DNA of 64,000 bases from Ruegeria arenilitoris (GTDB lineage Bacteria; Pseudomonadota; Alphaproteobacteria; Rhodobacterales; Rhodobacteraceae), in assembly GCF_013031355.1 (NCBI RefSeq), contig NZ_WPZO01000009.1, forward strand, positions 1 through 64,000, given 5' to 3'. Positions 15,467 to 34,900 of this stretch are shown here, piece after piece. The position numbers were made by a program, and so were the translations under genes. The number at the start of each line of letters is the position of its first letter. Position 1 is the first letter of the stretch. The notes beneath the pieces were generated by a model. That model was not told the DNA's origin. It worked only from the letters and a program-made list of their open reading frames with translations, and made no database searches.

Positions 15467-15568
15467 CCAGCCTCACGCAACGGTTAGGATTTTTGGTATT
15501 GAAGACGTACCTTTTGCGCTGCCAATGGGAAGGAAATCCAAAGCTAAAGACAAACTCAGGAGTGACTG

Positions 15569-16726
15569 ATGAACAAGCACGCATCGCTTTCGTCTGTTCT
15601 GACCCCGGTAAACACAGCGAAGGGGCTGCCGAACGAACATTATATCGACCCCGCCGTCTTCGCCGAGGAACGGGCCTCCGTCCTGTTCGCGAACTGGTCC
15701 GGTATCGGCTTTGGCAAGGACATCCCCGAAGCAGGCGATGCGAAACCGGTCGATTTCCTGGGAATGCCAATCCTGATGGTCCGCGACCGCAATGGTGAGA
15801 TCGGCGTGTTCCAGAACACTTGCCGTCACCGCGGCATGATTCTGGTCGACAAACCTCAGAAAATTCGAGGTGCGATCCGCTGCCCCTATCATAGCTGGTG
15901 CTATGGCCTGAATGGCGAACTGCGCACCGCACCGCACGTGGGTGGCCCCGGTCAGAACACGCACGAAGACCTGGATTTCGCCGAACTGGGTCTGGTTCGC
16001 ATCCGGTCCTACGTCTGGCGCGACGTTGTCTTCGTGAACGTTGACGGCAACGCCCCGGAATTCGAAGAGGTCCACGGCGAGCTGATGGAGCGCTGGAAAG
16101 AGTTCGAAAAGCCGATGTATCACGGTGGCGCCGGCGCATCCGTGCGCCTTGAGTTGGAGTCCAACTGGAAGCTCGCCGTCGAGAACTTCTGCGAGAGCTA
16201 TCATTTGCCTTGGGTTCACCCCGGACTGAACAGCTATTCGCGTCTGGAAGACCACTACAACATTAACGAGCTTGGCAAATACTCGGGTCAGGGAACGCTG
16301 GTTTACCGCCAGTTCGAAGGTCAGGACGGTGAAAAACTGGACGACTTCGAAGGCCTGAGCGACAAGTGGAATGAAGGCGCAGAATACATCGTCGTCTACC
16401 CGAACGTGATGCTGGGCGTTCAGCGCGACCACGGCTTCGCCTTTATCCTCGAGCCCGTGAACCACGAAAAAACCATCGAACATATCGAGCTGTACTACGC
16501 CAAAAAGCCCGAAGACGCGCCCGAGCATGAACCTTTGCGCGCCAAAAACTCGCAGCTTTGGAAAACCGTGTTCGAGGAAGACGTGTTTGTTGTTGAAGGC
16601 ATGCAAAAAGGCCGCCACGGCGTTCTGTTCGACGGGGGCCGCTTCTCGCCCGCAATGGACGGGCCGACGCACTGCTTCCACCATTGGGTCGCAACTCAGA
16701 TCGAAAAAGGTCGCACAGAAGCATGA
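15569..16726 (+). CDS. Rieske oxygenase alpha subunit for a quaternary ammonium substrate (GbcA/CntA-like)
   Basis: A 385-residue oxygenase. The Rieske cluster ligands are C85, H87, C105 and H108 (in CRHRG and CPYHSWCYG). The catalytic iron ligands are probably H212, H217 and D338. The bridging residue between the two metal sites is Glu (E209, in NFCESYH) instead of the usual Asp; as I recall, Glu here is typical of oxygenases acting on carnitine, glycine betaine and related compounds. The enzyme would hydroxylate an N-methyl or C-N carbon, releasing an aldehyde. AGGAG lies about six bases before ATG 15569. The downstream aldehyde dehydrogenase overlaps by four bases. Whether it prefers betaine, carnitine or stachydrine cannot be read here. 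Confidence 0.85.
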   Translation: MNKHASLSSVLTPVNTAKGLPNEHYIDPAVFAEERASVLFANWSGIGFGKDIPEAGDAKPVDFLGMPILMVRDRNGEIGVFQNTCRHRGMILVDKPQKIRGAIRCPYHSWCYGLNGELRTAPHVGGPGQNTHEDLDFAELGLVRIRSYVWRDVVFVNVDGNAPEFEEVHGELMERWKEFEKPMYHGGAGASVRLELESNWKLAVENFCESYHLPWVHPGLNSYSRLEDHYNINELGKYSGQGTLVYRQFEGQDGEKLDDFEGLSDKWNEGAEYIVVYPNVMLGVQRDHGFAFILEPVNHEKTIEHIELYYAKKPEDAPEHEPLRAKNSQLWKTVFEEDVFVVEGMQKGRHGVLFDGGRFSPAMDGPTHCFHHWVATQIEKGRTEA

Positions 16727-18174: not shown

Positions 18175-18176
18175 CC

Positions 18177-18416
18177 GTGGATCTGGAAGACCTGGATAAG
18201 AAACTCCTGCAGGCACATTCGGATTACGATGTACCTGCGTTGATCTGCCTATACCACGAGGCGGCAAATCAGGCAGAGCAGCGTCAGGACCACGACGCGG
18301 CCTGCTTTTACCTGACCCATGCCTTCGTGTTTGCGCTGGAATTCGGCGCACCCGAAGCGGATGAGCTGAACCAAAAGCTCTTCGAACGTGGTCGCGCGCA
18401 TCGTCTGGAGTTTTGA
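18177..18416 (+). CDS. small helical protein of unknown function
   Basis: A 79-residue acidic protein that I do not recognise. It appears all-helical with a TPR-like alternation (PALICLYHEAANQAEQ, then DAACFYLTHAFVFALEFG), and lacks a signal peptide, metal motif or transmembrane segment. GTG 18177 is preferred because AAGG lies six bases upstream; an in-frame TTG at 18171 overlaps the aldehyde dehydrogenase stop but has no spacing for a ribosome binding site. Tight spacing after the oxygenase and dehydrogenase genes makes it the last gene of that operon. It could be an assembly or scaffolding factor, but that is a guess. Confidence 0.75.
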   Translation: MDLEDLDKKLLQAHSDYDVPALICLYHEAANQAEQRQDHDAACFYLTHAFVFALEFGAPEADELNQKLFERGRAHRLEF

Positions 18417-18422
18417 AACAGC

Positions 18423-18451
18423 GGGAGCAATGCCTCTCAGGCAATGCCCCC
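18423..18451 (+). terminator. hairpin ending the oxygenase operon
   Basis: GGGAGCAATGCCT (18423-18435) and AGGCAATGCCCCC (18439-18451) form a 13-bp stem with two imperfect pairs, four bases past the small gene's region of stop. No clear T tract follows. The gap to 18573 otherwise shows no gene and should hold the promoter of the next gene. Confidence 0.5.
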
Positions 18452-18573
18452 GTATTCTTGCCGCTGGCCCTTAGGTTTAACCCACCTCACCCCACCTTGA
18501 ATTTTGTGGACATTGTCGATGGGCACCGGTTCGTGAAAGAAACTCAGCGAAACAAAACGCGCGAGATAACAAA

Positions 18574-20994
18574 ATGCGAACAGAAGCTCAGGCCGTAGTC
18601 ATCGGCGGCGGTGTAATCGGATGCTCGATCCTTTATCATTTAACCAAGTTGGGTTGGTCGGACGTTGTGCTGCTGGAACGGGATGAGTTGACCTCTGGCT
18701 CAACCTGGCACGCGGCGGCGAACATCCACGGGCTGCATGACAGCACCAATATCAGCCGTATCCAGCACTACACGATGAACCTGTATAATGCGCTGGAAGA
18801 GGAAACAGGCCAAAGCTGTGGCGTGTTCCAGCCCGGCTCGCTGTACCTGGCCCAAACCGAAGAGCGCGAGCATCAGCTCAAACTGCAGGCGGCCAAGGCC
18901 AAGCTCTATGGCATGAACTTCTATGAGATCAGCATCGAAGAGGCGCAGCGCCTGAATCCGCTGGTCAACTACGAAGGCATCCGTTGCGTGATGTTTGAAC
19001 CTGACGGCGGCAATGTCGATCCCTCTGGTGTGACCAACGCCTACGCGGTTGGTGCGCGCCAGCGCGGCGCCGAGATTCACCGCTTTACCCCTGTCACCGC
19101 GACCGAACAGCAGGACGACGGCACCTGGATCGTCAAAACCCCGAAGGGCGACATCAAAACGCCATGGGTGGTAAACGCTGCTGGCCTGTGGGGCCGTGAA
19201 GTTGCCAAACTGGCCGGGATCGATCTGCCGCTGCAGCCGACCGAGCACCAGTATTTCGTGACCGAAGCGATGTCGGACGTTCAGGCCCACCACACCCGCC
19301 TGCCTTCGGTCTCGGATCGTGACGGCGAATACTATTTGCGCCAGGAAGGCAACGGCCTGCTGGTCGGTGCCTATGAGAAGGACATGAAGTTCTGGGCCGA
19401 AGAAGGTACCCCGCTGGACTTCGCGCACGACCTGTTCCCCGACGATCTGGAGCGCATCGAAGAGAACATGATGAACGCCATCGAACGTCTGCCCGCCGTG
19501 GGTGAGGCCGGGATCAAGCGGGTCATCAACGGCCCGATGATCTGGTCGCCGGACTCGAACGTGCTGATGGGACCAGTCCCCGAAGTGGACGGCTATTTCT
19601 GCTGTAACGGCATCATCCCCGGCTTCTCGCAATCCGGCGGCATGGGCCTGATGGCGGCGCAGTGGATCATCGAGGGCGAGACCGAATATGACATGTTCGC
19701 CTGGGACATGGCGCGGTTCGACACCTGGGCCACCAGGGAATTCACCATGGCCAAGGTGCAGGACCAGTACGCACACCGTTTTGCCATCCACTTCCCGAAC
19801 GAAGAACGCAGCGCAGGCCGTCCTGCACGCGTGCGCCCGATCTATGAAACCCAGAAAGCCATGGGTGCGCTATTCGGCCTGAATGTCGGCTGGGAACATC
19901 CGCTGTGGTTCGCAGATGAACCGGGCGCCGTGGATACCAACGGCTTCACCCGTCAGAACTGGTGGGGGCCTGTGGGCGAAGAATGCAAGATGCTGCGAGA
20001 TCGCGCGGGCATCATCGATATCTCGAACTTTGCCAAATACGTCTGCAAAGGTCCAAGTGCTGCCGAATGGCTGAATGCCGTCTTCGCCAACACCATGCCC
20101 AAGGCGGTGGGGAGGTCGTGCCTGACCCCGCTGATTTCGAAACGCGGCGGAATCGCAGGTGACTTCACCGTCACTCGCGTGGCCGAGGACGAGTTCTGGA
20201 TCATCGGTTCGGGCATGGCCGAGCGTTATCACAAGCGGTTCTTCAAGCAGGTTTCGCTGCCCTTAGGCACAACCTTCGAAAGCAAGACCGAAGCGATGTG
20301 CGGCTTTAACGTAGCTGGCCCGAAATCGCGCGATATCCTGCAGCACCTGACCAACGCTTCACTGGCGACCGAGGACTTCCCGTTCATGCGTTCGGCCAAG
20401 ATCGAGCTTGCAGGGGTCGAGGTTCTGGCCCTGCGTGTGTCTTTCACAGGTGATCTGGGGTGGGAACTACACTGCGCCACCGAAGATCAGGCTCGCCTGT
20501 ATGACGCGCTGATCGAGGCTGGCAAGGATTTCGGCGCAGGCCCCGTTGGCAGCCGCGCGCTGATGTCGATGCGGGTGGAAAAGGGCTATGGTTCGTGGAG
20601 CCGCGAATACAGCCCCGAATACTGGCCGCATGAGGTTGGTCTGGAGCGCCTGTGTAAGTTCGAGAAGGACTTCCTGAACAAAGAGGCAGCGCTGAAAGTG
20701 CTGGAGAACCCCGCACGCGAACAACTGGTTCTGCTGCATCTGGACGAGGCCGACGTGACTGCCTCGAACGCGGACGCAACCGGCGGTGAGCCGATCTTTA
20801 AGGATGGCGACGGCATTGGACGCGTGACTTCGGGTACCTATGGCTACACCGTCGGCATGTCGCTGGCCTTGGGGTATGTCAAGAACGCCCAGCCGGGGGA
20901 TGAGGTCGAAGTCATGGTTCTCGGGCGCCCGCACAAGGCGGTTATCCTGCACGAGCCGCCGTTTGACGCAGCGGGTAAAGTGCTGCGGGGCTAA
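18574..20994 (+). CDS. FAD/GcvT fusion dehydrogenase, dimethylglycine/sarcosine dehydrogenase family
   Basis: An 806-residue two-part enzyme. The N-terminal ~420 residues are a DAO-type FAD domain with GGGVIG (11-16). H46, in SGSTWHAA, matches the histidine that binds FAD covalently in dimethylglycine and sarcosine dehydrogenases. The C-terminal ~380 residues are a GcvT-like tetrahydrofolate domain (KRGGIAGDFTVTR, later SFTGDLGWELH, and EKGYGSW). Such enzymes oxidatively demethylate secondary or tertiary amines and hand the methylene group to tetrahydrofolate. Its position after the Rieske oxygenase operon suggests it takes the demethylated product onward, for example dimethylglycine. It has two paralogues at 25.1-29.9 kb. 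The start has only a weak ribosome binding site. Confidence 0.9.
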   Translation: MRTEAQAVVIGGGVIGCSILYHLTKLGWSDVVLLERDELTSGSTWHAAANIHGLHDSTNISRIQHYTMNLYNALEEETGQSCGVFQPGSLYLAQTEEREHQLKLQAAKAKLYGMNFYEISIEEAQRLNPLVNYEGIRCVMFEPDGGNVDPSGVTNAYAVGARQRGAEIHRFTPVTATEQQDDGTWIVKTPKGDIKTPWVVNAAGLWGREVAKLAGIDLPLQPTEHQYFVTEAMSDVQAHHTRLPSVSDRDGEYYLRQEGNGLLVGAYEKDMKFWAEEGTPLDFAHDLFPDDLERIEENMMNAIERLPAVGEAGIKRVINGPMIWSPDSNVLMGPVPEVDGYFCCNGIIPGFSQSGGMGLMAAQWIIEGETEYDMFAWDMARFDTWATREFTMAKVQDQYAHRFAIHFPNEERSAGRPARVRPIYETQKAMGALFGLNVGWEHPLWFADEPGAVDTNGFTRQNWWGPVGEECKMLRDRAGIIDISNFAKYVCKGPSAAEWLNAVFANTMPKAVGRSCLTPLISKRGGIAGDFTVTRVAEDEFWIIGSGMAERYHKRFFKQVSLPLGTTFESKTEAMCGFNVAGPKSRDILQHLTNASLATEDFPFMRSAKIELAGVEVLALRVSFTGDLGWELHCATEDQARLYDALIEAGKDFGAGPVGSRALMSMRVEKGYGSWSREYSPEYWPHEVGLERLCKFEKDFLNKEAALKVLENPAREQLVLLHLDEADVTASNADATGGEPIFKDGDGIGRVTSGTYGYTVGMSLALGYVKNAQPGDEVEVMVLGRPHKAVILHEPPFDAAGKVLRG

Positions 20995-21051: not shown

Positions 21052-22371
21052 CTATCCCGTGGCGCGGCTAAAGGCCTGATCCAGACCATCCGCCACGTGA
21101 TCGACGTCTTCCATCGACAGGCACATCGGCGGCACCATGCGCAAGCAGGATTGGTATGCGCCCGATTTCGACAGGATAATCCCGCTTTCGCGCGTGGCCT
21201 CAAAAACGGCGGCGGTGGTCTGCGGGTCCGGCTCTTTGGTCTTGCGGTCCTTTACCATCTCGACAGCCAGCATCAGACCGCGCCCGCGCACATCGCCGAT
21301 GACCGAGTACTTGTCCTTCAGCACGTGCAGGCGCTCCAGCAAGGCGGACCCCACGTCGCGGGCGTTTTCGCGCACCTTGTCCCCTTTGATCACCTGCAGA
21401 ACAGCCCGCCCTGCCGCGCAGGAGGTCGGATTGGCACCGTAAGTGTGAAACATGAACTTCTCAGCCATTGGGGCCGCAATTTCCTTGCGCGCGACCACCG
21501 CGCCCAACGGAAAGCCGTTGCCTATGCCTTTGGCCATGACCACGATATCCGGGATGACGCCATCGGCCTCAAACCCCCACATGTGATCCCCGGTGCGCCC
21601 GAACCCGGATTGCACCTCATCCGCGATATAGAGCCCTCCGGCCGCCCGCACCCGTTCGGCGGCACCGGTCATATACCCCTTGGGCATTTCGACGATGCCG
21701 CCATAGCCCTGCACGCTTTCCACGAAAATCCCGGCGACGCGGCCGGTTGTGGCGGCGTGTATGGTGCGCTCGATCTCGTTCAGATAGGGCTGCGCACCCG
21801 CGTTTTCGCCAAAGATGCCGCGATACTGATGCGGGTCAGGCACAAAGGCGACGTTGCCAGGCACCCCCGGATGGCGCCAGCCCGAGATCCCGGTGATCGA
21901 TTGCGCCGCAGCCGTCGGGCCGTGATAGGCCGACCGCAACGCCAGCAGATCAAGGTTACCGGTAAAGCTCCGCGCCATGGTCATGGCGAGGTCGACCGCC
22001 TCAGAGCCCGAATTGGTAAAATGCACCACCCATTCGATGTCACCGTTGGGGTTGGGCATGGTGGCAGCCAGCTCCTCGGCAAAATGGGCGGGCACCGGAT
22101 GGTAGAACATGGTGGTGCAATGGGTCAGTTCCTGTGCCTGCTCCATCGCCGCGGCGACCACCTTGGGGTGGCTGTGCCCGACCGAGATGCAGACGTTCAT
22201 GCCCAGAAGGTCGGTGTATTTGCGCCCTTCGACATCCCAGAGGTACTGCATCGAGCCCTTCTTGAAGACCATCGGCTCTTTGAAGGGGACAAACTTGCGT
22301 TGGCTTGCGGCGTAAAAGGTATCTCGCCGCCGAGCGGTGTCGTTCAGGGTCCAGTCGGTTTGCATGTTCAT
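21052..22371 (-). CDS. class III PLP aminotransferase, AGXT2-like
   Basis: A 439-residue aminotransferase. The PLP lysine is K281 (in MAKGIGNGFPLG), with the cofactor-binding DEVQSGFGRTG at 251-261 and the phosphate-binding NSGSEAVDLAM at 120-130. The N-terminus (DTFYAASQRKFVPF) and overall order recall alanine-glyoxylate / beta-aminoisobutyrate aminotransferase 2. It would move an amino group from a beta- or omega-amino acid to pyruvate or glyoxylate. Its ATG overlaps the stop of the upstream MttB homologue (ATGA), so the two are translationally coupled. This suggests that the demethylated product of MttB is an amino acid with a free amine. The substrate is unknown. Confidence 0.9.
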   Translation of the reverse strand: MNMQTDWTLNDTARRRDTFYAASQRKFVPFKEPMVFKKGSMQYLWDVEGRKYTDLLGMNVCISVGHSHPKVVAAAMEQAQELTHCTTMFYHPVPAHFAEELAATMPNPNGDIEWVVHFTNSGSEAVDLAMTMARSFTGNLDLLALRSAYHGPTAAAQSITGISGWRHPGVPGNVAFVPDPHQYRGIFGENAGAQPYLNEIERTIHAATTGRVAGIFVESVQGYGGIVEMPKGYMTGAAERVRAAGGLYIADEVQSGFGRTGDHMWGFEADGVIPDIVVMAKGIGNGFPLGAVVARKEIAAPMAEKFMFHTYGANPTSCAAGRAVLQVIKGDKVRENARDVGSALLERLHVLKDKYSVIGDVRGRGLMLAVEMVKDRKTKEPDPQTTAAVFEATRESGIILSKSGAYQSCLRMVPPMCLSMEDVDHVADGLDQAFSRATG

Positions 22372-23888
22372 GGCTGTTCTCCTTCGATTTCCCGGCTGCG
22401 GCGGGCGACGAATTCTTCTAGGGCTTCGCGGATTCCGGCGTCCATGGCCGGGGCTTCGTAGTCTTCGATCAATTGTTTCACCCGGGCGGTGGCACGGTCA
22501 TGCTGCCAATAGGCACCCTCGGCCGCCCATTGTTCGTAGGTGCCGTTGTCGGACATGTCGCCCATCCAGAAGGCGGTTTCGAAATTGTCCTGCGTGTGTT
22601 GCGCGCCAAGAAAATGACCACCGGGTTCCACCTCGGAAAACGCCTCCATCGCCTGCGCGCTTTCCGAAAAATCGACGCCCTGAACAAAGCGCTGCATCGC
22701 CGCGCAGCGATCCGCATCCATGACGATCTTTTCATAACCGGTGGTCAGCAGCCCTTCGAGGCACCCCGTGGCGTGGATGATGAAGTTCACCCCAGCCAAC
22801 GCGGCCCCCATCAATTGGGCCTGACTTTCATACCCCGCTTGCGCGTCCGGCACTTTGGAGGCGGTCAGACCGCCAACCGAATGGAACGGCAGACCCAGCC
22901 GGTCCGCCAGCGTCTTGGCGCACATCTGAAGTTGCGTACCTTCGGGCGTGCCGAAGGTTGGCGCTCCGGTCTTGAGCGATATGGGTGAAAAGAACGTCCC
23001 GAAAGCAGCCGGAGCACCGGGGCGGATGAGTTGGATCAACGCGACGGATGCCATCACCTCGGCCAGTACTTGCGCCAACGTAGCAGCCACCGAAACCGGC
23101 GACATCGCGCCCCCCAGCACGAATGGAGAGACCACCGTGCACTGCCCTGCCCGCGCGTATTCCTTCAGCGCCCACAGCATGGTTTCATCCATCACCAAAG
23201 GCGCGTTGGTGTTGACCACGGAATACAGCACGCAGTTTTCGTCAACGAAGTCCGCGCCCATGGCGATCTTGCACATCTCGATCGTATCGCGGGCCCGCTC
23301 GGGCGCGGTTACGGCCCCCATGAAAGGTTTGTCGTTCATGGTCAGATGGGTATGTGCCATCTGCAGGTGGCGCAGTGGCACGGGAATATCGACCGGTTCC
23401 ACCACCACTCCGCCAGAATGGTTCACGGCGCCCAACTGATGGTGCAGCTTGGTGATATTCTGGAAATCTTCAAGCGTGGCATAGCGCCGTCCATTTTCCA
23501 TGTCATGCACGAAGGGCGGGCCAAAGCTGGGGGCATAGACCTGAGCCTTTCCGCCGATCTGAATCGACCGGGCGGGATTGCGGGCGTGTTGGGTAAAGAC
23601 AGACGGCGCGGTGTTGATCTTGTCACGGCACCAGCCGGGGTCAAACCGCACCCGCTCGCCCTCGACCCGCGCGCCGTGGGCCTTGAACAGGTCCAGCGTG
23701 TCGGGGTCACCGCGAAACTCCATGCCGATCTCGTCCAGAATTCGGTCGGCATTGCGCTCAATGATAGCGATAGCTTCGTCGTCGATCAGGCTGACCAGCC
23801 CGATCCGCCGCGTCACATAGGGGGTGGATACCGCCCCCTTGGCGGCCCGCGCTTGAACGCGCGATTTGCGGCCTGAACGACGTGACAT
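22368..23888 (-). CDS. MttB-family methyltransferase lacking pyrrolysine
   Basis: A 506-residue member of the trimethylamine methyltransferase (COG5598) superfamily. The reading frame is continuous with no in-frame amber codon, so it belongs to the non-pyrrolysine branch that includes the anaerobe glycine-betaine methyltransferase MtgB. Recognisable stretches are SVVNTNAPLVMDETML and FGTPEGTQLQMCAKTLADRL. MtgB-type enzymes move a methyl group from a quaternary amine to a corrinoid protein. No corrinoid protein gene is adjacent here. ATG 23888 follows GGGGAGG at six bases; a TTG at 23903 is discarded. It lies between lysR and an aminotransferase on the same strand. The substrate is unknown. 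Confidence 0.88.
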   Translation of the reverse strand: MSRRSGRKSRVQARAAKGAVSTPYVTRRIGLVSLIDDEAIAIIERNADRILDEIGMEFRGDPDTLDLFKAHGARVEGERVRFDPGWCRDKINTAPSVFTQHARNPARSIQIGGKAQVYAPSFGPPFVHDMENGRRYATLEDFQNITKLHHQLGAVNHSGGVVVEPVDIPVPLRHLQMAHTHLTMNDKPFMGAVTAPERARDTIEMCKIAMGADFVDENCVLYSVVNTNAPLVMDETMLWALKEYARAGQCTVVSPFVLGGAMSPVSVAATLAQVLAEVMASVALIQLIRPGAPAAFGTFFSPISLKTGAPTFGTPEGTQLQMCAKTLADRLGLPFHSVGGLTASKVPDAQAGYESQAQLMGAALAGVNFIIHATGCLEGLLTTGYEKIVMDADRCAAMQRFVQGVDFSESAQAMEAFSEVEPGGHFLGAQHTQDNFETAFWMGDMSDNGTYEQWAAEGAYWQHDRATARVKQLIEDYEAPAMDAGIREALEEFVARRSREIEGEQP

Positions 23889-23998
23889 GTGGTGCCTCCC
23901 CAATTCCTGTTGGATACGGCGCGGGAGCCCGTGCCGGTTCCCTGACTATGCATTGGAAACGGGTCGCGAACAGGGGGAGAGGCCTTTGATCGGAAATC

Positions 23999-24976
23999 CT
24001 AATGATTGGGATTAGCGCCGGTGAAGTATGTGATCTGATCCGCGATGTCCGGAAAGCGGTGTTCGAAATGCGTACGCAGAATATCAGCACATTGATGGGC
24101 CAGACGGGCCGGGATATCGCCCAGATCCTCTTTGCGCGACACCACCTGCACGCCACGTTTGAAGCCGGAAAACGGCAACGGCACAATGCGCAGCGGCATC
24201 CCTTCGGCCACGCCGTCGATCAACAGTGAGGGCGTCAGGATCGCGAAACACTTGCCGGTCACTACGCCGGCCACCACCATCGAGGACCGGTCCGCCTCGA
24301 TCGCGCGGGGCAGGTTCAGGCGACAGCGTTGCAGGTGCTGATCCGTGCGTCGACCCACTGGGGTCAGCGCGCCAAATCGCACGAGTGACAAGCGTTTGGA
24401 AATGGCGTGGATATCGTCTTCGGGACCGTCGTAACCTTCGGGCAATACCAGAAAAAATGGTTCTTCCATAACGGGATAGGTGTCGTAATCGTCGCTCATC
24501 ACAAACAGCTCCGAGGTAACGGCAATATCGATCTTTCGCGCGGTCAGCGCACTTTGGTGGTCGCTGGCCAAGCCCGCCGACAGGATCAATTCCGGCACCC
24601 GCAGGTCATGTTCGACAAAGTCGAAAAGGCCCGGTGTCAGCGTCGTGGCGATTGAGGCCAGAAGCCCAACGCGCAACACCGGCAGCGTGGCAGCTTTCAG
24701 GTGGCGCAGGTCCGATTTCAGGTCTTCGATCTCGTTGAGAATGCGATACCCGTGCCGCTGCATCGCCTCACCTGCATGGGTCAGCCCCAGCGGCCTGTGA
24801 GATCGGTCGACCAATGTCACGCCAAAGGCGCTTTCCAGGTTTTTCAGATGCTGCGAGGCTGCCGATTGGGTGATCCCCAAGGCATGTGCTGCCGCCGTCA
24901 CATGGCGCATCTCCGCGACGGCCATGAACACTTCGATGGCCCGAAACAGGTTGATTTCAGTCTCATTGCGCGTCAT
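23999..24976 (-). CDS. LysR-family regulator of the MttB / FAD-GcvT block
   Basis: A 325-residue regulator with an N-terminal helix-turn-helix (VAEMRHVTAAAHALG, then ITQSAASQHLKNLE) and a LysR substrate domain. ATG 24976 is preferred over the longer frame to 25054 because a GAGGG motif precedes it and the helix-turn-helix then starts at the usual place. It is divergent from the FAD/GcvT pair, 161 bases away, and upstream of the MttB homologue on its own strand, so it is placed to control both arms. An ATCAT-N11-ATGAT dyad lies in the divergent region. Confidence 0.9.
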   Translation of the reverse strand: MTRNETEINLFRAIEVFMAVAEMRHVTAAAHALGITQSAASQHLKNLESAFGVTLVDRSHRPLGLTHAGEAMQRHGYRILNEIEDLKSDLRHLKAATLPVLRVGLLASIATTLTPGLFDFVEHDLRVPELILSAGLASDHQSALTARKIDIAVTSELFVMSDDYDTYPVMEEPFFLVLPEGYDGPEDDIHAISKRLSLVRFGALTPVGRRTDQHLQRCRLNLPRAIEADRSSMVVAGVVTGKCFAILTPSLLIDGVAEGMPLRIVPLPFSGFKRGVQVVSRKEDLGDIPARLAHQCADILRTHFEHRFPDIADQITYFTGANPNH

Positions 24977-25049
24977 TTGCGCCCTCTTTCCCGTTAATTG
25001 CAGCCGATTGCGCGATACGCCCTGGGCAGGAACGGCGCAAGCTCTGCTT

Positions 25050-25070
25050 ATCATTAGTTGTAGTTATGAT
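25050..25070. promoter_or_regulatory. probable LysR operator (ATCAT-N11-ATGAT)
   Basis: ATCAT at 25050-25054 and ATGAT at 25066-25070 form a perfect inverted repeat with an 11-base spacer, giving the LysR T-N11-A pattern. It lies about midway between the lysR start (24976) and the FAD/GcvT start (25138). Confidence 0.6.
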
Positions 25071-25137
25071 GATAGGTGACACTTGATCCCTTTCATGTCG
25101 CGGCGAACATGGACGGCAAGAGCGAGGAGTGCCATTC

Positions 25138-27531
25138 ATGGCGGGAACCATCATTATTGGAGGCGGCGCGATCGGGCTGAGCCTGGCCTATCATCTGGCC
25201 TCAGCCGGGGCGACAGATGTGCAGGTGCTTGAGCGCAACCAGCTGACCTCGGGCACCAGCTGGCACGCGGCCGGAATTGTCGGCCCGTTGCGCGCGACGC
25301 CGAACATGACCCAGTTGGCGATGTATGCCGGAACGCTATTCCCCAAGCTGGAAGAGGAATCAGGCCTGTCCACCGGGTATCGTCAAACCGGTGGCTATTG
25401 GCTGGCGCGTGACCCCAACCGAATGGATGAACTGCATCGCATTGCGTCGCTAGGTCGACATCTTGGGCTGACGCCATCCATCCTGTCCCCCGATCAAATC
25501 GACGTCCCCGGCCTCAGCACAGATGGCTTGGTCGGCGCGTTGCGGGTTGAAGAGGACGCAAACGTGAACCCCGTGGATCTGTGCATGGCCTACGCCAAGG
25601 CCGCCCGCGCCAAGGGGGTGCAGATCCGGGAAGGTGTGCGGGTGGACCGGTTGCTGGTCGAAGGCGGCGGGATCAAAGGTGTCGCTCTGGCCGACGGGAC
25701 CGAGTTGTTGGCGGATCGCGTGGCGTTATGTGCCGGAGCCTGGTCCAAAAAGCTGGCTGATGCAGCGGGGGTAGCCCTGCCCTTACAGGCGGTGGAACAT
25801 ATGTATGTAGTGACCGAGCCGATGGCCGGATTGCCTAACCCCTATCCGGTATTGCGTGATCTGGACCGTGGTTTCTACGTCAAAGGTGATGCGGGCAAGC
25901 TGGTGATTGGTGGCTTTGAGCCGAACGCGAAGTGCTGGGATGCCTTCGGCCCCGAGGGCGACCGCCCGTTTCTGGAACTGCCCGAGGACTGGGACCAGTT
26001 CATGCCCTTCATGGAGGGTGCCCTGGAATTGATCCCGGCGCTGTCCGAGACGGGCATCCAGCATTTCATGAACGGTCCCGAGAGCTTTACCCATGACACT
26101 CGCCCCCTGATCGGTCAGACCCCCGAAGTGGATGGGCTGTATGTGGCCACGGGTATGAACTCGGTCGGTGTCATGTCGTCGGCCGGTGTCGGACGGGTTC
26201 TGGCCGATTGGATGATCGCGGGCGAAGCGCCGATGGACCTGTGGGAGGTGGACGTGGCGCGCGTCGATCCTCTGGCTTCCGCTGCCGACCATATCGAAAC
26301 CCGGATGGAAGAGGCGGTCAGCGACGCCTTTGCCCTGCACTGGCCGTTCAAACAGCCCAAGGCCGGGCGCGGTCTGCGCAAATCGGCCTTGCACGACAAA
26401 TGGGCGGCGGCAGGGGCCGAATTCGGCCTCACCGTGGGTTGGGAACGCGGGCTGTGGTATGCGCGGGACGATAGCGAACGGGAACTGCCCTACTCCGTCG
26501 GAGAACAGCCCTGGCAGGAGATCATCCACCGCGAGGCCGCGATCATGGAGCATGGCACGGCTCTGATCGACCTGTCGCCATTTGGCAAGTTCGACATCAC
26601 CGGGTCGGATGCGTTGGCGCTGGTGCAATATCTGGCAACTGCCGATTTGGACGTCGCGCCCGGACGCGCGGTCTATACGCCACTTTTGAATGCTCGCGGA
26701 GGGGTTGAGGCCGACGTCACTGTCCTACGCCTTGGCTCGGATCATTTCCGAATGGTGTCCGGAGCCGCAACCCGGCAGAAGGACTTTGCGTGGCTCCGGC
26801 GTCACGGCACAGGGCGTGACGTAGTGATCCGGGACGTCACCGAAGACGTGGTGGTGATCGGCGTGATGGGCGCCGGGTCGCGTGATATTCTGGCGGCATT
26901 GTCTGACGCCGACTGGCAGGACTTCCCGTTCTCCAACGCCCGTGACGTTTTCGTGGCCGGCATCCCCTGCCGTGCGCTGCGGGTGAGTTTCGTAGGGGAG
27001 TTGGGGTGGGAGCTTTACATTCCCGCTCATCAAGGCGGGCCGGTATTTGATGCGCTCTACGCGCAAGGTGCGCGGCCGATGGGTCATTTCGCGCTGGACG
27101 GGTGCCGGATCGAGAAAGGGTTCAAACATTGGGGTCATGACCTTGGCCCTGATATTTCTCCGCTGGAGGCCGGGCTGGGCTTTGCCGCGGCGTGGGACAA
27201 AGAGTTTTTGGGCAAGGCGGCACTGGTCCGGCAAAAGGCCGAAGGCCCGCGTCGTCGCGCGGTGATCTTTGAGCTGCCGGACAAACCGCTCATTCTGCAT
27301 GACGAATTGATCCACGAAGGTGGTCGCGTGGTCGGTGCCACCACTTCGGGCGCACGAGGTGCCCGCACCCGCAAGACTTATGCACTGGGGCTGGTCGAGA
27401 TCGCGCCAGGTGAAACCCTGCCCCAGACCTGCGACCGCAGCTTCACCATCGAGGTGGCCGGCAAACACTATCCGGCGATCCCGCTGATGCGCCCGCCCTT
27501 TGACCCCAAGAACGAACGGATGAAATCATGA
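25138..27531 (+). CDS. FAD/GcvT fusion dehydrogenase (second copy)
   Basis: A 797-residue enzyme with an N-terminal DAO domain (GGGAIG at 8-13; H43 in SGTSWHAAG as the expected covalent flavin site) and a C-terminal GcvT domain (SFVGELGWELY and GCRIEKGFKHWGHD). It belongs to the dimethylglycine/sarcosine dehydrogenase family and would demethylate an N-methyl amino acid, passing C1 to tetrahydrofolate. ATG 25138 has GAGGAG eight bases upstream; a GTG at 25129 is discarded. Its stop overlaps the start of the next FAD/GcvT gene by four bases. The sequence is clearly diverged from both other copies, which argues for different substrates rather than recent duplication. Confidence 0.9.
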   Translation: MAGTIIIGGGAIGLSLAYHLASAGATDVQVLERNQLTSGTSWHAAGIVGPLRATPNMTQLAMYAGTLFPKLEEESGLSTGYRQTGGYWLARDPNRMDELHRIASLGRHLGLTPSILSPDQIDVPGLSTDGLVGALRVEEDANVNPVDLCMAYAKAARAKGVQIREGVRVDRLLVEGGGIKGVALADGTELLADRVALCAGAWSKKLADAAGVALPLQAVEHMYVVTEPMAGLPNPYPVLRDLDRGFYVKGDAGKLVIGGFEPNAKCWDAFGPEGDRPFLELPEDWDQFMPFMEGALELIPALSETGIQHFMNGPESFTHDTRPLIGQTPEVDGLYVATGMNSVGVMSSAGVGRVLADWMIAGEAPMDLWEVDVARVDPLASAADHIETRMEEAVSDAFALHWPFKQPKAGRGLRKSALHDKWAAAGAEFGLTVGWERGLWYARDDSERELPYSVGEQPWQEIIHREAAIMEHGTALIDLSPFGKFDITGSDALALVQYLATADLDVAPGRAVYTPLLNARGGVEADVTVLRLGSDHFRMVSGAATRQKDFAWLRRHGTGRDVVIRDVTEDVVVIGVMGAGSRDILAALSDADWQDFPFSNARDVFVAGIPCRALRVSFVGELGWELYIPAHQGGPVFDALYAQGARPMGHFALDGCRIEKGFKHWGHDLGPDISPLEAGLGFAAAWDKEFLGKAALVRQKAEGPRRRAVIFELPDKPLILHDELIHEGGRVVGATTSGARGARTRKTYALGLVEIAPGETLPQTCDRSFTIEVAGKHYPAIPLMRPPFDPKNERMKS

Positions 27532-29942
27532 CGGTCACGCAAGCTCAGGTCCTGATCATCGGCGGCGGTGCCATGGGGGTGTCGCTGATGTACCACCTGA
27601 CCAAGGCGGGTTGGTCGGATGTAGTACTAACCGAAAAGAACGATCTGACCCACGGGTCGACCTGGCACGCGGCGGGATTGTGCACGCATTTCGCTCATAA
27701 CCCGACCATTCAGGAACTGCGCGCCACCTCGGTCCGGCTGTATCGTGATATCTTGCCGGAAGAGACCGGCGGCACCTGCGGATTTCACCGCTCGGGCGCG
27801 ATGCGAATTACCTCGAACCCAGATCGCATGGATGAGTTCGCCCATGTGGCGGGGCTGAGCCGGTTCACCGGCTATGATCTGCAGATGCTGACCCCCGACG
27901 ATGTGGAGCGCCTGCATCCGCTGGCACGGACCGAAGGCCTGTTGGGCGGGATTTACGAACCCGATGACGGCCATGTGGACCCGACACTGGCAACCAATGC
28001 AATGGCGCAGGTGGCGCGCCGGAACGGCGCCACGATCCTGCGCTACAACCCTGTGACTTCAATCCGACGCGAGGGCGAGTTCTGGGTGGTCGAGACCGAA
28101 AAGACCACGATTCACGCCCACCATCTGGTCAATGCTGCGGGCACCTGGGGCTGGGAAATCGGTCACATGATGGGGCTGAACATCCCTTCGGTTCCGGTGC
28201 TGCACCAATACCTTGTAACCGACACAGTCGGAGCCGTGGCCGATCGCATCGCGGCAGGCCTGCCCGAACTGCCGATGATCCGTGACCCGGAAGAAAGCTG
28301 GTATGTCCGGCAGGAACGCGACGGGCTGATCCTTGGCCCTTATGAAAAGAACGCCGAGGCCTGGTCGATTGACGGCTGTCCGCCGGATTTTGGCGCCGAC
28401 CTGATGCCGCCCGATCTGGACCGGGTCGAGGACATCATCATGATGGCGATGGCGCGTATTCCGGCGCTGGAAACCGGCGGGATCAAATCGGTGGTCAATG
28501 GCCCAATTACCTTCACCCCAGATGCCAACCCGCTGATCGGTCCCGCCCACGGGCTGCCCAACGCCTGGCTGTTGACTGGGTCCTCGATGGGAGTGATGGA
28601 AGGCGGAGGCGCGGGCTGGTTCCTGTCCCATTGGATGACGCATGGTGCGCCGCCGATGGATGCGTTGGCCGTGGACAGCCGCCGGTTCGGCAGCTGGGCC
28701 GACCGCGACTATCGTGTGCAGAAGGCCATCGAGTGCTTCGGCTTGCAGTTCGGCGTACATTACCCGCACGAAGAACGCCCCGCCGCACGCGGCAAACGGC
28801 TGTCGCCGGTCCATGACCGGATGGTCGCACGGGGCGCGGTGATGGGCGCCGCTTATGGCTGGGAACGGCCTAACTGGTTTTCGGGCAAACAGGGGGACGA
28901 AGCCGCACCAAGCTTCCGCCGATCCAACTGGTTCGACCGGGTGGCGGTGGAATGTGAAACCGTCGCCAACCACGTCGGGCTGGCCGATATGTCGGTCTTT
29001 GCCAAGTTCGACGTAACCGGCCCTGACGCACGCGCTTTCGTGGACAGCATTGGCGCGAACCGAGCACCTAAGCCCGGGCGGATCAGCCTGACTCATGCCC
29101 TGACTCCGGCAGGCGGAGCTCAGTCGGAATTTACCGTATCGGTTCTGGCAGAGGATCACGTCTACCTGACCTCAGCCGCAGCCGCGGAAGAGATGGATGA
29201 CGATCTGCTACGCGCCCGTGCCGAAGGATTTGACGTCACCATCACCCGCGTGACCGACGATTTCGGGGTGCTTGGCCTGATGGGGCCGAAATCGCGGGAT
29301 GTACTGGCTGCGCTTACCAATACCGATCTTGGGGTGAACTTCCCCTGGTTGTCCGTGCGAGAAATCGACGTGGCTGGTATTCCCGTCCGGGCGCTGAGGG
29401 TGTCCTATGTCGGCGAACTCGGCTGGGAGTTGCATGTAAAATCTGCCGACATGCCCACCTTGTTTGATGCGGTGGAAGAGGCAGGTAAACCGCATGGCCT
29501 GGACTATTTCGGGGCCTATGCGATGAACGCGATGCGGCTGGAAAAGGGGTACCGCGCATGGGGCGCAGACTTCACCACTGAACGCACCCCGACGGAAACG
29601 GGTGCGGGTCCGATGATCAAGATGGATCATGAGTTCATCGGCAAGGATGCCCTAGCCACACGGATGCAGGCCGAAGATCGCTGGGACATGGTGTTGCTGG
29701 ACGTGGAAACCACCGACGTCGATCCGTATTACGCCCACGGTGTCTATCAGGGCGACCGCGTTGTTGGCATCGTCACCTCGGCCGCTTTCGGGCATCGCAC
29801 CGGCAAGACACTGGCGCTGGCCTATCTGCGCGACCGGACCGTGCGGAGCGGGCTGAGTGTCGAGGTTCTGGGTCAAAGGCGCGCTGCGGTAATTCTTGAC
29901 CAACCGCCCTATGACCCGGACAACAAACGCATGAAGAACTGA
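27528..29942 (+). CDS. FAD/GcvT fusion dehydrogenase (third copy)
   Basis: An 804-residue paralogue, translationally coupled to the second copy (ATGA at 27528-27531). It has GGGAMG at 12-17, the expected covalent flavin histidine H48 in HGSTWHAAG, and a GcvT domain (SYVGELGWELH and EKGYRAWGADF). The N-terminal segment (YHLTKAGWSDVVL) is close to the 18.6-kb copy, more so than to its direct neighbour. Two coupled enzymes of this family could remove successive methyl groups from one substrate. No separate heterotetrameric sarcosine oxidase genes are present in the window. Confidence 0.9.
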   Translation: MTVTQAQVLIIGGGAMGVSLMYHLTKAGWSDVVLTEKNDLTHGSTWHAAGLCTHFAHNPTIQELRATSVRLYRDILPEETGGTCGFHRSGAMRITSNPDRMDEFAHVAGLSRFTGYDLQMLTPDDVERLHPLARTEGLLGGIYEPDDGHVDPTLATNAMAQVARRNGATILRYNPVTSIRREGEFWVVETEKTTIHAHHLVNAAGTWGWEIGHMMGLNIPSVPVLHQYLVTDTVGAVADRIAAGLPELPMIRDPEESWYVRQERDGLILGPYEKNAEAWSIDGCPPDFGADLMPPDLDRVEDIIMMAMARIPALETGGIKSVVNGPITFTPDANPLIGPAHGLPNAWLLTGSSMGVMEGGGAGWFLSHWMTHGAPPMDALAVDSRRFGSWADRDYRVQKAIECFGLQFGVHYPHEERPAARGKRLSPVHDRMVARGAVMGAAYGWERPNWFSGKQGDEAAPSFRRSNWFDRVAVECETVANHVGLADMSVFAKFDVTGPDARAFVDSIGANRAPKPGRISLTHALTPAGGAQSEFTVSVLAEDHVYLTSAAAAEEMDDDLLRARAEGFDVTITRVTDDFGVLGLMGPKSRDVLAALTNTDLGVNFPWLSVREIDVAGIPVRALRVSYVGELGWELHVKSADMPTLFDAVEEAGKPHGLDYFGAYAMNAMRLEKGYRAWGADFTTERTPTETGAGPMIKMDHEFIGKDALATRMQAEDRWDMVLLDVETTDVDPYYAHGVYQGDRVVGIVTSAAFGHRTGKTLALAYLRDRTVRSGLSVEVLGQRRAAVILDQPPYDPDNKRMKN

Positions 29943-29951
29943 AGGTATCCC

Positions 29952-30716
29952 ATGGCGACACACCCGATTATCGTGCTTTGGTCTCATCCCCGCTCGATGT
30001 CCACCGCGACCGAGCGGATCATGCGGGAACGCGGCGATATGGACTGCGCCCACGAGCCGTTCATGTATGACTACTATGTGCATCGCGAAAGGCGAGTCAT
30101 GCCGCATTTTGACGTGCAGGAAGGCCATCCTACGCGGTATGAGGACATTCGTGACATGCTGCTGTCCCGGGCCGTAACCCGTCCGGTGTTCTTCAAGGAC
30201 ATGGCCTACTACGTTTTGCCTCAAATTCTTGAAGACGTGGCGTTTCTCAACCGCTTGACCCACGGATTTCTGGTGCGCGAGCCCGTAGCCTCGATTGCGT
30301 CATACCACCGACTGGACCCTGAGGTGACGGAGGAGGAAATTGGCCTCGAAGCGCAGCGATGGCTGCATGACGGGATCAAGGCAGTCACCGGTCAGGCGGC
30401 TCCGGTCATTTCCGCCGAGGACATGCGCGACGACCCTCGCGGTGTGATGAATGCGCTGTGGCGCGCTTGGGGGTTGGCCCCTGCGGATCACGCCTTTGAC
30501 TGGCAAAGCGATGTGCCAAGGGATTGGGGCCAGGTCGAAGGATGGCACGGAGACGTGAGTCAAGCGACCGGTATCCGCCCGATCGAGGAAGGTGAGCGCC
30601 AGCGCCAGATCGACAAGTTCGAAGCTCAGGCCGCAACAGCGCCGCAATTGCGCGAGTACCTCGACCATCACCTTCCGCACTATCAGGCATTGAAGTCGAA
30701 AAAACTGACAGCCTGA
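29952..30716 (+). CDS. sulfotransferase-like P-loop protein
   Basis: A 254-residue protein beginning with a beta strand and the loop SHPRSMSTATERIM (about residues 12-25), which matches the PAPS 5'-phosphosulfate-binding loop of sulfotransferases. A second conserved element, GFLVREPVASIASYH (about 100-114), matches the 3'-phosphate-binding Arg/Ser segment. It has no signal peptide or membrane segment. It lies nine bases after the third FAD/GcvT gene with AAGG before its ATG, so it belongs to that operon. Why a sulfotransferase fold is tied to amine demethylation is not clear; the acceptor is unknown, and a non-sulfotransferase role cannot be excluded. Confidence 0.75.
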   Translation: MATHPIIVLWSHPRSMSTATERIMRERGDMDCAHEPFMYDYYVHRERRVMPHFDVQEGHPTRYEDIRDMLLSRAVTRPVFFKDMAYYVLPQILEDVAFLNRLTHGFLVREPVASIASYHRLDPEVTEEEIGLEAQRWLHDGIKAVTGQAAPVISAEDMRDDPRGVMNALWRAWGLAPADHAFDWQSDVPRDWGQVEGWHGDVSQATGIRPIEEGERQRQIDKFEAQAATAPQLREYLDHHLPHYQALKSKKLTA

Positions 30717-31939: not shown

Positions 31940-34900
31940 GTGAATACAGGCGGTTTGGGGCGGTCCGTGCAGGCGCGCGTGGCCAGAGGTGGTCGTGTTG
32001 TCAAATGGAAAGGCAGGATTGCCAGCATTGCACCTTCGGTGTTTCTGGCCTCGGCATCCATAGGGACAGTGCCTTCGGGAATGGCCGTGGCAGAGGTTAT
32101 TTCCACTCCGCAAACCTCTCCGGTGATCTTTGCAAACGACGAGGATAACAGCATCACGTCCACAGGCTCGGTGGTCGTTTCCACGGCCACGGCCCCCGCC
32201 GTGACGCTCGATCCGGTTTATTCCAGCACTCTGACCAACGATGGCACCGTGTCGGCAACGGCCAATGCAACAGCTATTGGTCTGCTGGTGGACACTCAGG
32301 TGCTGCCCTCCGGCCAGATCGTGAACAATGGCGCGATCAGCGCAACTGTTGCCGCTGGAACCAGCAATGCCACGGCGATGAGCTTTTTGACCAACGGCGA
32401 TTTCGACGGGACGTTCCAGAATTCCGGTACGCTGTCGGCCAACGCCGCGACTATTGCAGATAATGCAGTCGCCGTCGGCGCCGGGTTCGAGGACGGCGTT
32501 CAGGCAACCGGATCGGTCCATAACGGAGGAACAATTTCCGCTGTGGCTGCAGCCGGATCCTCGAACGCGACAGCGGCGGCGCTGCAGTTTGGCGATGACG
32601 TCAACACCACCATCAGCAACACCGGAACCCTGAGTGCAACAACGGCCGGCGGCGCCAGTGTTTCGGCGGCCGGTGTCGATGTAGAGGGCGCGGTAAACGG
32701 AGACATTGTCAATTCGAACACCATCACCGTTCAGACCAATTCCGGTGCCGAAACGGCACAAGTCACAGGTGTACAGGTTGATAACGGCCTGACAGGCAAC
32801 GTGGTGAACTCCGGGAACATCACGGTAAAAGCACTCAACAGTCAGACCAGCTCAGATGTCGATGGTGTCCGCGTCAACAACGGCCTGCAGGGGAATGTGA
32901 CCAATTCGGGTACGATGACAATCTCCGCTTCGGGGTCATCATCCGTGGCCGCTGATGGATACTATGTCAGTAGTGGCCTGACGGGCAGCTTCCTGAACTC
33001 GGGCAGCATCCAGATCAACGCGCAGGGTGGCTTTAACGAAACCGATGCCGATGCATTCTATGTCAGCGGCGGGATGACTGGCGACATCACCAACTCCAGC
33101 ATAGTGACAGTCAACGCGGCGGGCTCGTCCTCGGTCGATGCGGACGCGTTCTATGTGAGCAGCGGCCTGACCGGTAGCTTCCTGAACTCCGGCAGCATTA
33201 CGGTCAAAGCCAGCAGCGGCTTCAGCGAAGGCGATGCGGACGCGTTCTACGTCAGCAGTGGCATGACCGGGGACATCACGAACACCGGTACGGTCACGGT
33301 CAAATCGAACAGCACGTCGGCGGCCGACGCCAGTGCTTTCAATGTCTCCAGTGGGTTTGATGGAAATTTCACGAACTCCGGAACAGTTTCGGTCAATGCG
33401 GCTGGTGGTTTCAGTCGAGCATCGGCAGAGGCCTTGCACATCGCCGGTGGGATGACTGGAAACCTCACGAACTCGGGCACCGTCACAGTCACCGCGTCCG
33501 GGTCGTCAGAGGTCCGCGCAGATGGGTTTGATATCAGCAGCGGCCTGACGGGGACAGTGACAAATACCGGCACAATTACCGTCAATGCCTCGGGGTCTGA
33601 CGAGATTTCGGTCAACGGGATCGACATTGCCGGCGGCCTAACAGGCGACCTCAACAACGGCGGCGACATCACGGTCAAGGCTGATGCCAGCAATTCAAGC
33701 GCGCGGGCCAGCGGCGTGGACATCACCAGCGGACTAACAGGCAGCATCACCAACTCAGGCAGTGTTACGGCAGTTGCACATGCAGGATCGGAAACAGCCA
33801 ATGCAGCCGGGCTGCGTGTCGGCGGAGGCTTTGTCGGGAATGTGAGCAATTCCGGCTCGATCCGTGCCGAGTCTGTTGCGGGCTCATCAGAAGCTTTGGC
33901 TTATGGTCTGGTGTCCTATGGCGACATGACCGGAAACATCTCGAACGGTGGGTCGGTTTCCATTTCGGCTTCAGGGGTGGACACGGCTACCGCGTCAGGT
34001 TTCCAGATCAATGGCGATCTGACGGGAATCTTTTCAAACACGGGCAGCCTGACTGTTGAAGCCTCCGCTTCGCACGCCTTTCACGAGGATGTCATGGTGA
34101 CGGGGCTGGATGTCACGGGCCACATTCAGGGCGGGTTCAGCAACGCCGGAACCGTGTCGATCAAAGGCACTGGAGAGAACAGGCAGGCTTATGTGTTTGG
34201 CCTGTTTGCCCATGATGGTGTAACCGGGAATGTCGAAAACTCCGGCCTGATCCGCAGCGAAGTGGACAGTGGGACCTCGGCCGATGTCTACGGCATCCGG
34301 ATCGATGGCGGTCTGGACGGCGCATTCTCGAACACGGGCACGATCGAGGTCATCGGCCACACGGATGAGGATGATTTGGACGCTTACGGCGTTAGCATTC
34401 GCGACGGTGCCACTGATGATATAAGCAACAGCGGCGTGATTACGTTGCAGGCAAATGCCGGTGGTGAGGCCGAAGCGATCGGGCTGAGAGTGTCCGGTGA
34501 GGCCGAGGTAGGCATCCTGAACTCGGGCACGATCTCAATTGTCACCCAGAGCCATACCGATGACGCGCTGGGGTACGGCATTTCCATCGTTTCGGGGCTG
34601 GACGGCGATATCATCAATTCGGGCGCAATCTCGGTTCAGGGGATCGGCGCGACCGAAGTCACCGTTGCCGGGATCTACGTCAATCAGCACTGGAACGGTG
34701 CGTTGAACAATTCCGGCACCATCCTTGCCATTGCGGATGCCGGCGAGGAAGAGGCGTTAGCCTATGGCGTTCTGACCCGAAATGACGCGGTGGATGCGGA
34801 TATCAACAACTCTGGCACTTTCGCAGTAAAAGCCAGTTCAGATGATGAATATGCCAACGCCTACGGGATCTACTTTGATCATGAAGCGCCCAACAGCAAT

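What the first reader, a model, noticed from the sequence alone, without database searches (positions are those of the whole stretch)
22368..30716. Bidirectional LysR-controlled block joining MttB, AGXT2-like aminotransferase, two FAD/GcvT dehydrogenases and a sulfotransferase-like protein
One LysR gene and one T-N11-A dyad (25050-25070) sit between two arms. One arm couples a non-pyrrolysine MttB to a class III aminotransferase by a four-base overlap; the other couples two FAD/GcvT demethylases to a P-loop protein with a PAPS-type loop. No known pathway I can name combines all of these. The set implies removal of several methyl groups from a polymethylated amino compound, then transamination of the freed amine. 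The sulfotransferase-like member suggests an extra or sulfated intermediate. This is the strongest candidate here for an undescribed catabolic system.
Basis: partly seen in the sequence, partly recalled or inferred. Interest (0 to 1): 0.8.

Follow-up and report, generated by a model that had tools for sequence, protein, structure and literature searches.

The report
Betaine demethylation regulon with sulfotransferase
A conserved set of bacterial genes beside one regulator looks built to strip methyl groups and then the amine from an unknown betaine-like nutrient, and it unexpectedly includes a sulfate-adding enzyme that tends to travel with the set across genomes.

Summary
The block is real and conserved. 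Among 37 loci with close MttB orthologs, AT adjoins in 36, LysR is present in 35, FAD1 in 36 and FAD2 in 33; three of the four FAD2 misses run off a contig end. A rearranged form, MttB'-FAD1-FAD2-AT on one strand, shows that the arms belong together. The divergent promoters share a LysR-type operator, degenerate in the window. The sulfotransferase is no stray neighbour: it occurs in 7 of 7 FAD1-positive genomes against 2 of 142 others, and in 30 of the 37 locus genomes. A PAPS-synthase gene abuts it in three genomes and is one gene away in a fourth; in two of the four it is an extra copy. The enzymes fit removal of three N-methyl groups from a quaternary amine, then PLP-dependent deamination, with a sulfation step somewhere. 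Substrate, order and site of sulfation are unknown, and no activity is shown. Eight literature searches, read as capped listings, showed no such pathway. L-carnitine is unlikely here. Boldest reading: sulfation makes a leaving group that the PLP enzyme eliminates.

The parts
21052..22371 (-). AT: class III PLP aminotransferase-fold enzyme, 439 aa (K281, E218, R411 conserved)
   Evidence: PF00202 291 bits; within 67 bases of MttB in 36 of 37 loci; the three residues in 42 of 43 aligned rows, one row gapped
22368..23888 (-). MttB: non-pyrrolysine MttB-superfamily methyltransferase, 506 aa (ATG 23888; alternative TTG 23903)
   Evidence: PF06253 676 bits; best solved matches 4YYC 580.8 bits and glycine betaine methyltransferase 9YCE 369.5 bits
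23999..24976 (-). LysR-type regulator, 325 aa (ORF runs up to ATG 25054)
   Evidence: PF00126 and PF03466; in 35 of 37 loci
   Evidence: ATTAG-N5-CTAAT shared by most orthologous regions, but not matched by the window itself
25138..27531 (+). FAD1: FAD/GcvT demethylating dehydrogenase, 797 aa (GTG 25129 or ATG 25138)
   Evidence: DAO, FAO_M, GCV_T, GCV_T_C; dimethylglycine dehydrogenase 5L46 404 bits, WHAAG histidine aligned
27528..29942 (+). FAD2: FAD/GcvT demethylating dehydrogenase, 804 aa
   Evidence: same four domains; dimethylglycine dehydrogenase 5L46 665 bits
29952..30716 (+). ST: PAPS-type sulfotransferase, 254 aa, Sulfotransfer_5
   Evidence: PF19798 57.7 bits over cut-off 23.2; PAPS motifs invariant in 17 rows; model pLDDT 91.8; co-occurrence; PAPS-synthase neighbours

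Best explanation
An inducible catabolic regulon for an as yet unidentified quaternary ammonium (betaine-type) compound. MttB moves the first methyl to a corrinoid protein, probably the genome's single MtgC-type protein. FAD1 and FAD2 then oxidise the dimethyl and monomethyl amines in turn, passing the carbons to tetrahydrofolate. The class III PLP enzyme removes the freed amino group. A PAPS-dependent sulfotransferase acts on the substrate or an intermediate, most simply on a hydroxyl group. LysR switches both arms from one operator. Shown: gene content, conservation, linkage, co-occurrence of ST, PAPS-synthase linkage, conserved motifs. Inferred: substrate class, induction, order of steps, THF as acceptor, the sulfation step and its place.
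For: Core conserved in 37 loci. MttB'-FAD1-FAD2-AT on one strand in G036, G038, G073 and G133; block MttB and MttB' group together at 100/99. ST in 7/7 FAD1+ against 2/142 FAD1- genomes, Fisher 1.3e-10, not corrected for kinship, and in 30 of 37 locus genomes. Sat/CysC next to ST in three genomes and one gene away in a fourth, an extra copy in two of the four. In six genomes a betaine-type binding protein and an SDR lie between FAD2 and ST (OpuAC domain confirmed for L081 and L132). One B12-binding_2 protein in the genome, nearest to MtgC models but below their cut-offs. Shared operator.
Against: No biochemistry. Seven of 37 locus genomes, four of them from isolates by their titles, lack an ST ortholog; six of the seven have only 33-35% paralogs, so sulfation is not strictly required or is done otherwise there. 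L072 lacks AT; L078 lacks FAD1, FAD2 and LysR on its contig. At the cut-offs used, G064 holds AT without FAD1 and G004 holds ST without FAD1. No corrinoid protein lies in the block. The window's own operator is degenerate.
Confidence: 0.62

Rival explanations
1. Plain three-step demethylation and transamination of a non-hydroxylated betaine such as beta-alanine betaine or gamma-butyrobetaine; ST is an accessory that sulfates a side product, an osmolyte or an alcohol for export, not a catabolic step.
For: AT keeps transaminase residues E218 and R411; 7 of 37 locus genomes do without an ST ortholog; ST stands among genes that look unrelated, by eye, in several genomes.
Against: ST co-occurs with FAD1 7/7 against 2/142, and a PAPS-synthase gene sits beside it in the same gene cluster in some genomes.
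Confidence: 0.22
2. A second glycine betaine route: MttB as glycine betaine methyltransferase, FAD2 and FAD1 as dimethylglycine and sarcosine dehydrogenases, AT turning glycine into glyoxylate.
For: Glycine betaine methyltransferase is a solved relative of MttB; FAD2 matches dimethylglycine dehydrogenase at 665 bits; the linked ABC binding protein is OpuAC-type.
Against: FAD1 orthologs occur in only 7 of 149 family genomes, rare for so common a nutrient; it leaves no role for ST; glycine betaine demethylation in Ruegeria pomeroyi is assigned to MtgBCD (PMC12478193, abstract and passages). A commoner MttB clade exists with an own-genome member, L003; whether it holds the known mtgB was not tested.
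Confidence: 0.08
3. Demethylating catabolism of L- or D-carnitine, giving 4-amino-3-hydroxybutyrate, which AT (with or without sulfation) deaminates.
For: Carnitine has a hydroxyl next to the amine-bearing carbon; the optional SDR is nearest to 3-hydroxybutyrate dehydrogenase, below cut-off; an MttB member that demethylates carnitine exists (PMC8604678, passages).
Against: Carnitine 3-dehydrogenase with a BCCT transporter beside it lies elsewhere in this window (41282-42703 and 39444-41156), so this organism has another route for L-carnitine.
Confidence: 0.08

Closest known systems
MtgBCD glycine betaine demethylation of Ruegeria pomeroyi (PMC12478193)
   Same: aerobic roseobacter; MttB-family methyltransferase with a corrinoid protein; later demethylation steps
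   Different: there coupled to methionine synthesis; term counts show neither 'sulfotransferase' nor 'aminotransferase' in its text; in the window's genome the MtgC-type gene lies outside the block
MtcB/MtyB/MtpB quaternary amine demethylases of Eubacterium limosum (PMC8604678, passages)
   Same: non-pyrrolysine MttB enzymes of distinct substrate sharing one corrinoid protein
   Different: anaerobic acetogen; no FAD/GcvT enzymes or AT in the pathway (recalled)
Ethanolamine-phosphate phospho-lyase (PDB 6TOR) and phospholyase (5G4I)
   Same: nearest and third-nearest solved relatives of AT
   Different: both have Lys where AT has Arg411
Dimethylglycine dehydrogenase (5L46, 4P9S)
   Same: whole-length match of FAD1 and FAD2, aligned WHAAG histidine
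   Different: named for a glycine derivative; here two paralogs stand in one block
Choline-O-sulfate utilisation (BetC sulfatase; recalled)
   Same: links quaternary amines with sulfate esters
   Different: removes sulfate; here a sulfotransferase and PAPS synthase would add it

Membership tests
MttB superfamily, non-pyrrolysine quaternary amine methyltransferase | full-length MTTB domain | tested here: met
   PF06253 676 bits, profile 1-499 of 500
MttB superfamily, non-pyrrolysine quaternary amine methyltransferase | no in-frame amber (pyrrolysine) codon | tested here: met
   open frame without stop
MttB superfamily, non-pyrrolysine quaternary amine methyltransferase | close relation to an enzyme of known substrate | tested here: inconclusive
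   glycine betaine methyltransferase 369.5 bits; 4YYC, named only putative, 580.8 bits
MttB superfamily, non-pyrrolysine quaternary amine methyltransferase | methylates a corrinoid protein from a quaternary amine | not testable with these tools
   one candidate corrinoid protein in the genome
Dimethylglycine/sarcosine dehydrogenase (FAD + GcvT) | DAO, FAO_M, GCV_T and GCV_T_C domains | tested here: met
   both proteins
Dimethylglycine/sarcosine dehydrogenase (FAD + GcvT) | flavin-linking histidine in the WHAAG stretch (role recalled) | tested here: met
   aligned in FAD1 and FAD2 with dimethylglycine dehydrogenase
Dimethylglycine/sarcosine dehydrogenase (FAD + GcvT) | tetrahydrofolate-dependent N-demethylation | not testable with these tools
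   folate-site residues were not examined
Class III transaminase (AGXT2-type) | PLP lysine, gateway Glu and flipping Arg (roles recalled) | tested here: met
   K281, E218, R411 in 42 of 43 rows, one row gapped
Class III transaminase (AGXT2-type) | closer to AGXT2 than to other class III enzymes | tested here: inconclusive
   no chain so named among 58 solved hits at E<=1e-40; best is ethanolamine-phosphate phospho-lyase
Phospholyase (ETNPPL type) | Lys at the flipping-Arg position, as in both solved phospholyases | tested here: not met
   Arg in AT
PAPS-dependent sulfotransferase | Sulfotransfer_5 domain above cut-off | tested here: met
   57.7 bits over 23.2
PAPS-dependent sulfotransferase | 5' phosphosulfate loop and 3' phosphate motif R..S (motifs recalled) | tested here: met
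   H12, P13, R14, S15, S17, T18 and R109, P111, S117, Y118 invariant in 17 rows
PAPS-dependent sulfotransferase | sulfate transfer from PAPS | not testable with these tools
   only genomic support: Sat/CysC and CysQ neighbours
MtgBCD glycine betaine system | acts on glycine betaine with MtgC and MtgD | not testable with these tools
   an MtgC-type protein lies elsewhere in the genome; MtgD was not searched
L-carnitine to glycine betaine route | carnitine 3-dehydrogenase in the cluster | tested here: not met
   at 41282-42703, outside the block; no match in any of 53 searched loci, L036-L088

The most novel reading that the evidence does not exclude
Sulfation-driven deamination: the sulfotransferase puts sulfate on the hydroxyl next to the amine-bearing carbon of a hydroxylated quaternary amine. 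MttB, FAD1 and FAD2 bare the amine, and the class III PLP enzyme expels sulfate and ammonia by beta-elimination. This would be a sulfate counterpart of the kinase/phospholyase route (as of phosphoethanolamine), a catabolic pathway in which sulfation activates an aliphatic osmolyte.
Probability: 0.17. Interest if true: 0.88.

Novelty: new variant of a known kind. Interest (0 to 1): 0.68.

Why it matters
Quaternary amines are major nitrogen and carbon currencies in seawater, and most MttB-family enzymes have no known substrate. Here a regulated gene set shared by many genera points to one such substrate, and a sulfotransferase, in some genomes with a PAPS-synthase gene beside it, sits with a breakdown pathway, where sulfation is not expected. 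The set makes the question directly testable: one inducer screen and four or five gene removals would settle it.

Tried and rejected
Arms independent: rejected. FAD1 lies in 36 of 37 loci, and a one-strand form exists.

Left-hand cluster (Rieske oxygenase, ALDH, third FAD/GcvT) as part of the system: rejected, found beside the block in 1 of 37 loci, L047; the loci reach at most 10 kb either side and some contigs end sooner.

AT as an ordinary phospholyase: weakened, since Arg replaces the Lys of both solved phospholyases.

ST as a stray neighbour: rejected by co-occurrence.

My first search for 13-base palindromes found little and was replaced by an arm search.

Led nowhere: literature searches on homarine, beta-alanine betaine, MttB/GcvT and sulfotransferases, of which I saw 3 of 3, 17 of 18, 20 of 26, 20 of 343, 12 of 1,963, 12 of 64, 1 of 1 and 10 of 13 papers listed; one search was on phospholyases (10 of 34 listed). 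The solved-structure search with ST gave no hit at E<=10. The phospholyase structure paper is not held.

Papers: PMC12478193 outline, abstract and 12 of 14 passages; PMC8604678 12 of 22 passages; PMC12482172 8 passages; all others search listings only.

Dropped rows: five of the 42 loci (L083-L087, MttB 50-52%) are left out of the 37. That scan uses six exact peptide patterns and finds close relatives only. Among the 35 intergenic regions two genomes stand twice (L036/L051, L038/L079). Three MttB loci (L020, L027, L033) were left out of the tree as copies of L039-L041. The structure job used 17 ST rows, all from the window and the loci; one search used 37 ST rows, 38 MttB rows and 43 AT rows.
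Full report
What is there. The block spans 21052-30716. On the minus strand: LysR (start 24976), MttB (22368-23888) and a class III PLP enzyme (AT, 21052-22371) coupled to MttB by a four-base overlap. On the plus strand: FAD1 (25138-27531) and FAD2 (27528-29942), also coupled by four bases, then ST (29952-30716) nine bases on. Pfam places them as MTTB, Aminotran_3, DAO/FAO_M/GCV_T/GCV_T_C twice and Sulfotransfer_5. NCBIfam gives no match above a curated cut-off among the families shown for the block proteins, and none at all for ST at E<=0.001.

Conservation. A pattern scan of one genome for each of 84,980 species with MttB returned 42 loci. Five are 50-52% relatives and were set aside. The other 37 (73-96%) come from genera or bins that belong to the Rhodobacteraceae group (placement of genera recalled), except that L055 and L076 are titled only 'Proteobacteria bacterium' and 'Alphaproteobacteria bacterium'. 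In the 37, AT adjoins MttB in 36 (not L072), LysR is present in 35 (not L077, L078), FAD1 in 36 (cut by the contig end in L066, L067 and L076; absent from the L078 contig) and FAD2 in 33 (those three contigs end before it; absent from L078). In a separate survey of 149 family genomes of 148 genera, MttB above 80% occurs in 3, FAD1 at 67% or more in 7 and AT at 75% or more in 9, at the E-value cut-offs set in those calls.

The two arms belong together. G036, G038 and G073 carry LysR divergent from MttB'-FAD1-FAD2-AT on one strand. G133 has the same four genes from a contig edge, and G139 has the pieces on two contigs, with an ST between FAD1 and MttB'. In a tree of 51 MttB proteins the block MttB and MttB' group together (100/99), apart from a commoner roseobacter group; the root is a midpoint and the program warns that long branches meet there.

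Regulation. ATTAG-N5-CTAAT, which fits the LysR T-N11-A rule (recalled), lies between LysR and FAD1: strict core TTAG-N5-CTAA in 17 of 35 regions, relaxed form in 24 of 35, against 0.0 and 0.38 in mononucleotide shuffles; with the two doubled genomes counted once, 16 and 22 of 33.

The sulfotransferase. In the 149 genomes, ST at 44% or more occurs in 9: all 7 FAD1-positive genomes, G139 (which holds FAD1 in pieces at contig ends) and G004. Counted strictly this is 7/7 against 2/142, Fisher 1.3e-10, without correction for kinship. In four of the seven it lies on another contig than the block (G036, G038, G073, G133), so linkage alone does not make the signal. In the 37 loci, ST lies inside 16. 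Seven have none: one no match, six only 33-35% paralogs. Total 30 of 37. The seven without are three MAGs and four isolates by their titles, so incomplete assembly does not explain them all.

PAPS supply. A bifunctional sulfate adenylyltransferase/adenylylsulfate kinase (NF004040, 1037 bits over 669 for the L081 protein) lies directly next to ST, on the same strand, in L128, L136 and L138 (the last cut by the contig end), and in L081 with only CysQ between it and ST. A CysQ-like gene also lies beside ST in L130, but its match is spread over several frames, so that copy looks interrupted. In the genomes of L081 and L136 the Sat/CysC gene is an additional full-length copy, in L081 100% identical (rounded) to the one elsewhere; in that of L128 it is the only copy found; for L138 the split contigs do not tell. 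The window's own genome has one full-length copy, unlinked, as do four other block genomes checked (L047, L065, L070, L088); none was found at E<=1e-60 in the L048 genome. L128, L136 and L138 may be one inherited arrangement, so independent events may be as few as two. ST keeps both PAPS-binding motifs (motif meaning recalled) and gives a confident model (pLDDT 91.8); its fold was not compared with solved structures.

Enzymes. FAD2 matches dimethylglycine dehydrogenase at 665 bits, FAD1 at 404 bits; both align the WHAAG histidine. MttB is nearest to 4YYC (580.8 bits), then to glycine betaine methyltransferase (369.5). AT is nearest to ethanolamine-phosphate phospho-lyase but has Arg411 where the two solved phospholyases have Lys; Glu218 and Arg411 are kept in 42 of 43 rows, one row gapped. 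The genome has 16 MttB matches and one B12-binding_2 protein, nearest to MtgC models though below their cut-offs, so this MttB probably shares that corrinoid protein.

Neighbours as clues. In six genomes (L128, L132, L135, L136, L139, L140) a betaine-type ABC binding protein and a short-chain dehydrogenase lie between FAD2 and ST; OpuAC was confirmed for L081 and L132, and the dehydrogenase is nearest to 3-hydroxybutyrate dehydrogenase, below cut-off, in the two tested. Three Leisingera loci (L053, L062, L066) have a PotD-like transporter and an OYE-like flavoprotein instead (families tested for L062). These point to a quaternary amine or similar substrate but do not name it. L-carnitine is unlikely in this organism because carnitine 3-dehydrogenase (748 bits over 592) sits elsewhere in the window; no relative of it lies in any of 53 searched loci.

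Most likely working. MttB takes the first methyl, FAD1 and FAD2 the next two, AT the amine; a PAPS-dependent sulfation acts on the substrate or an intermediate. Order, substrate and the site of sulfation are inferred. Because AT's nearest solved relative is a beta-eliminating phospholyase (chemistry recalled), sulfate could serve as a leaving group; Arg411 argues for transamination instead, so I hold this at 0.17.

Novelty. Eight searches of the held library aimed at the pathway listed no paper that by title and abstract start joins these parts; several listings were capped, and the library lacks most subscription papers, so a description elsewhere is possible. All protein families are known; the combination, above all a sulfotransferase that follows an N-demethylation block across genomes, appears undescribed.

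Noticed in passing
13479-20994: A neighbouring second cluster: DmmA-like reductase, LysR, Rieske oxygenase, ALDH and a third FAD/GcvT protein; the last three recur beside the block in 1 of 37 loci, L047.
   Followed up: partly
39444-42703: Carnitine 3-dehydrogenase next to a BCCT transporter.
   Followed up: yes
37107-39431: A 774-aa TPR plus Sulfotransfer_3 protein, a different sulfotransferase type, beside the BCCT transporter.
   Followed up: no
31940-36994: A 1684-aa highly repetitive open frame that looks, by eye, like an autotransporter; no Pfam match at E<=1e-5.
   Followed up: partly
L046:9998-18862: A Sulfotransfer_5 paralog (36%) in the same genome beside a Rieske oxygenase, an Amdase-like protein, a FAD/GcvT protein and a mandelate-racemase-family enzyme: a second link between this sulfotransferase family and demethylases.
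   Followed up: partly
L058:13941-21509: Right beside the block a second MttB / class III aminotransferase / FAD / FAD set of distant sequence (25-38%), as if the same plan served another substrate.
   Followed up: no
G000 whole genome: 16 MttB-family matches but only one B12-binding_2 corrinoid protein, next to a DUF1638 gene.
   Followed up: partly
L095:8066-15569 and L097:12257-19901: After AT in two genomes come an FGGY-type kinase (family tested in L095 only), a small DUF1330-like protein (name recalled) and an ABC transporter; their role is unknown.
   Followed up: no
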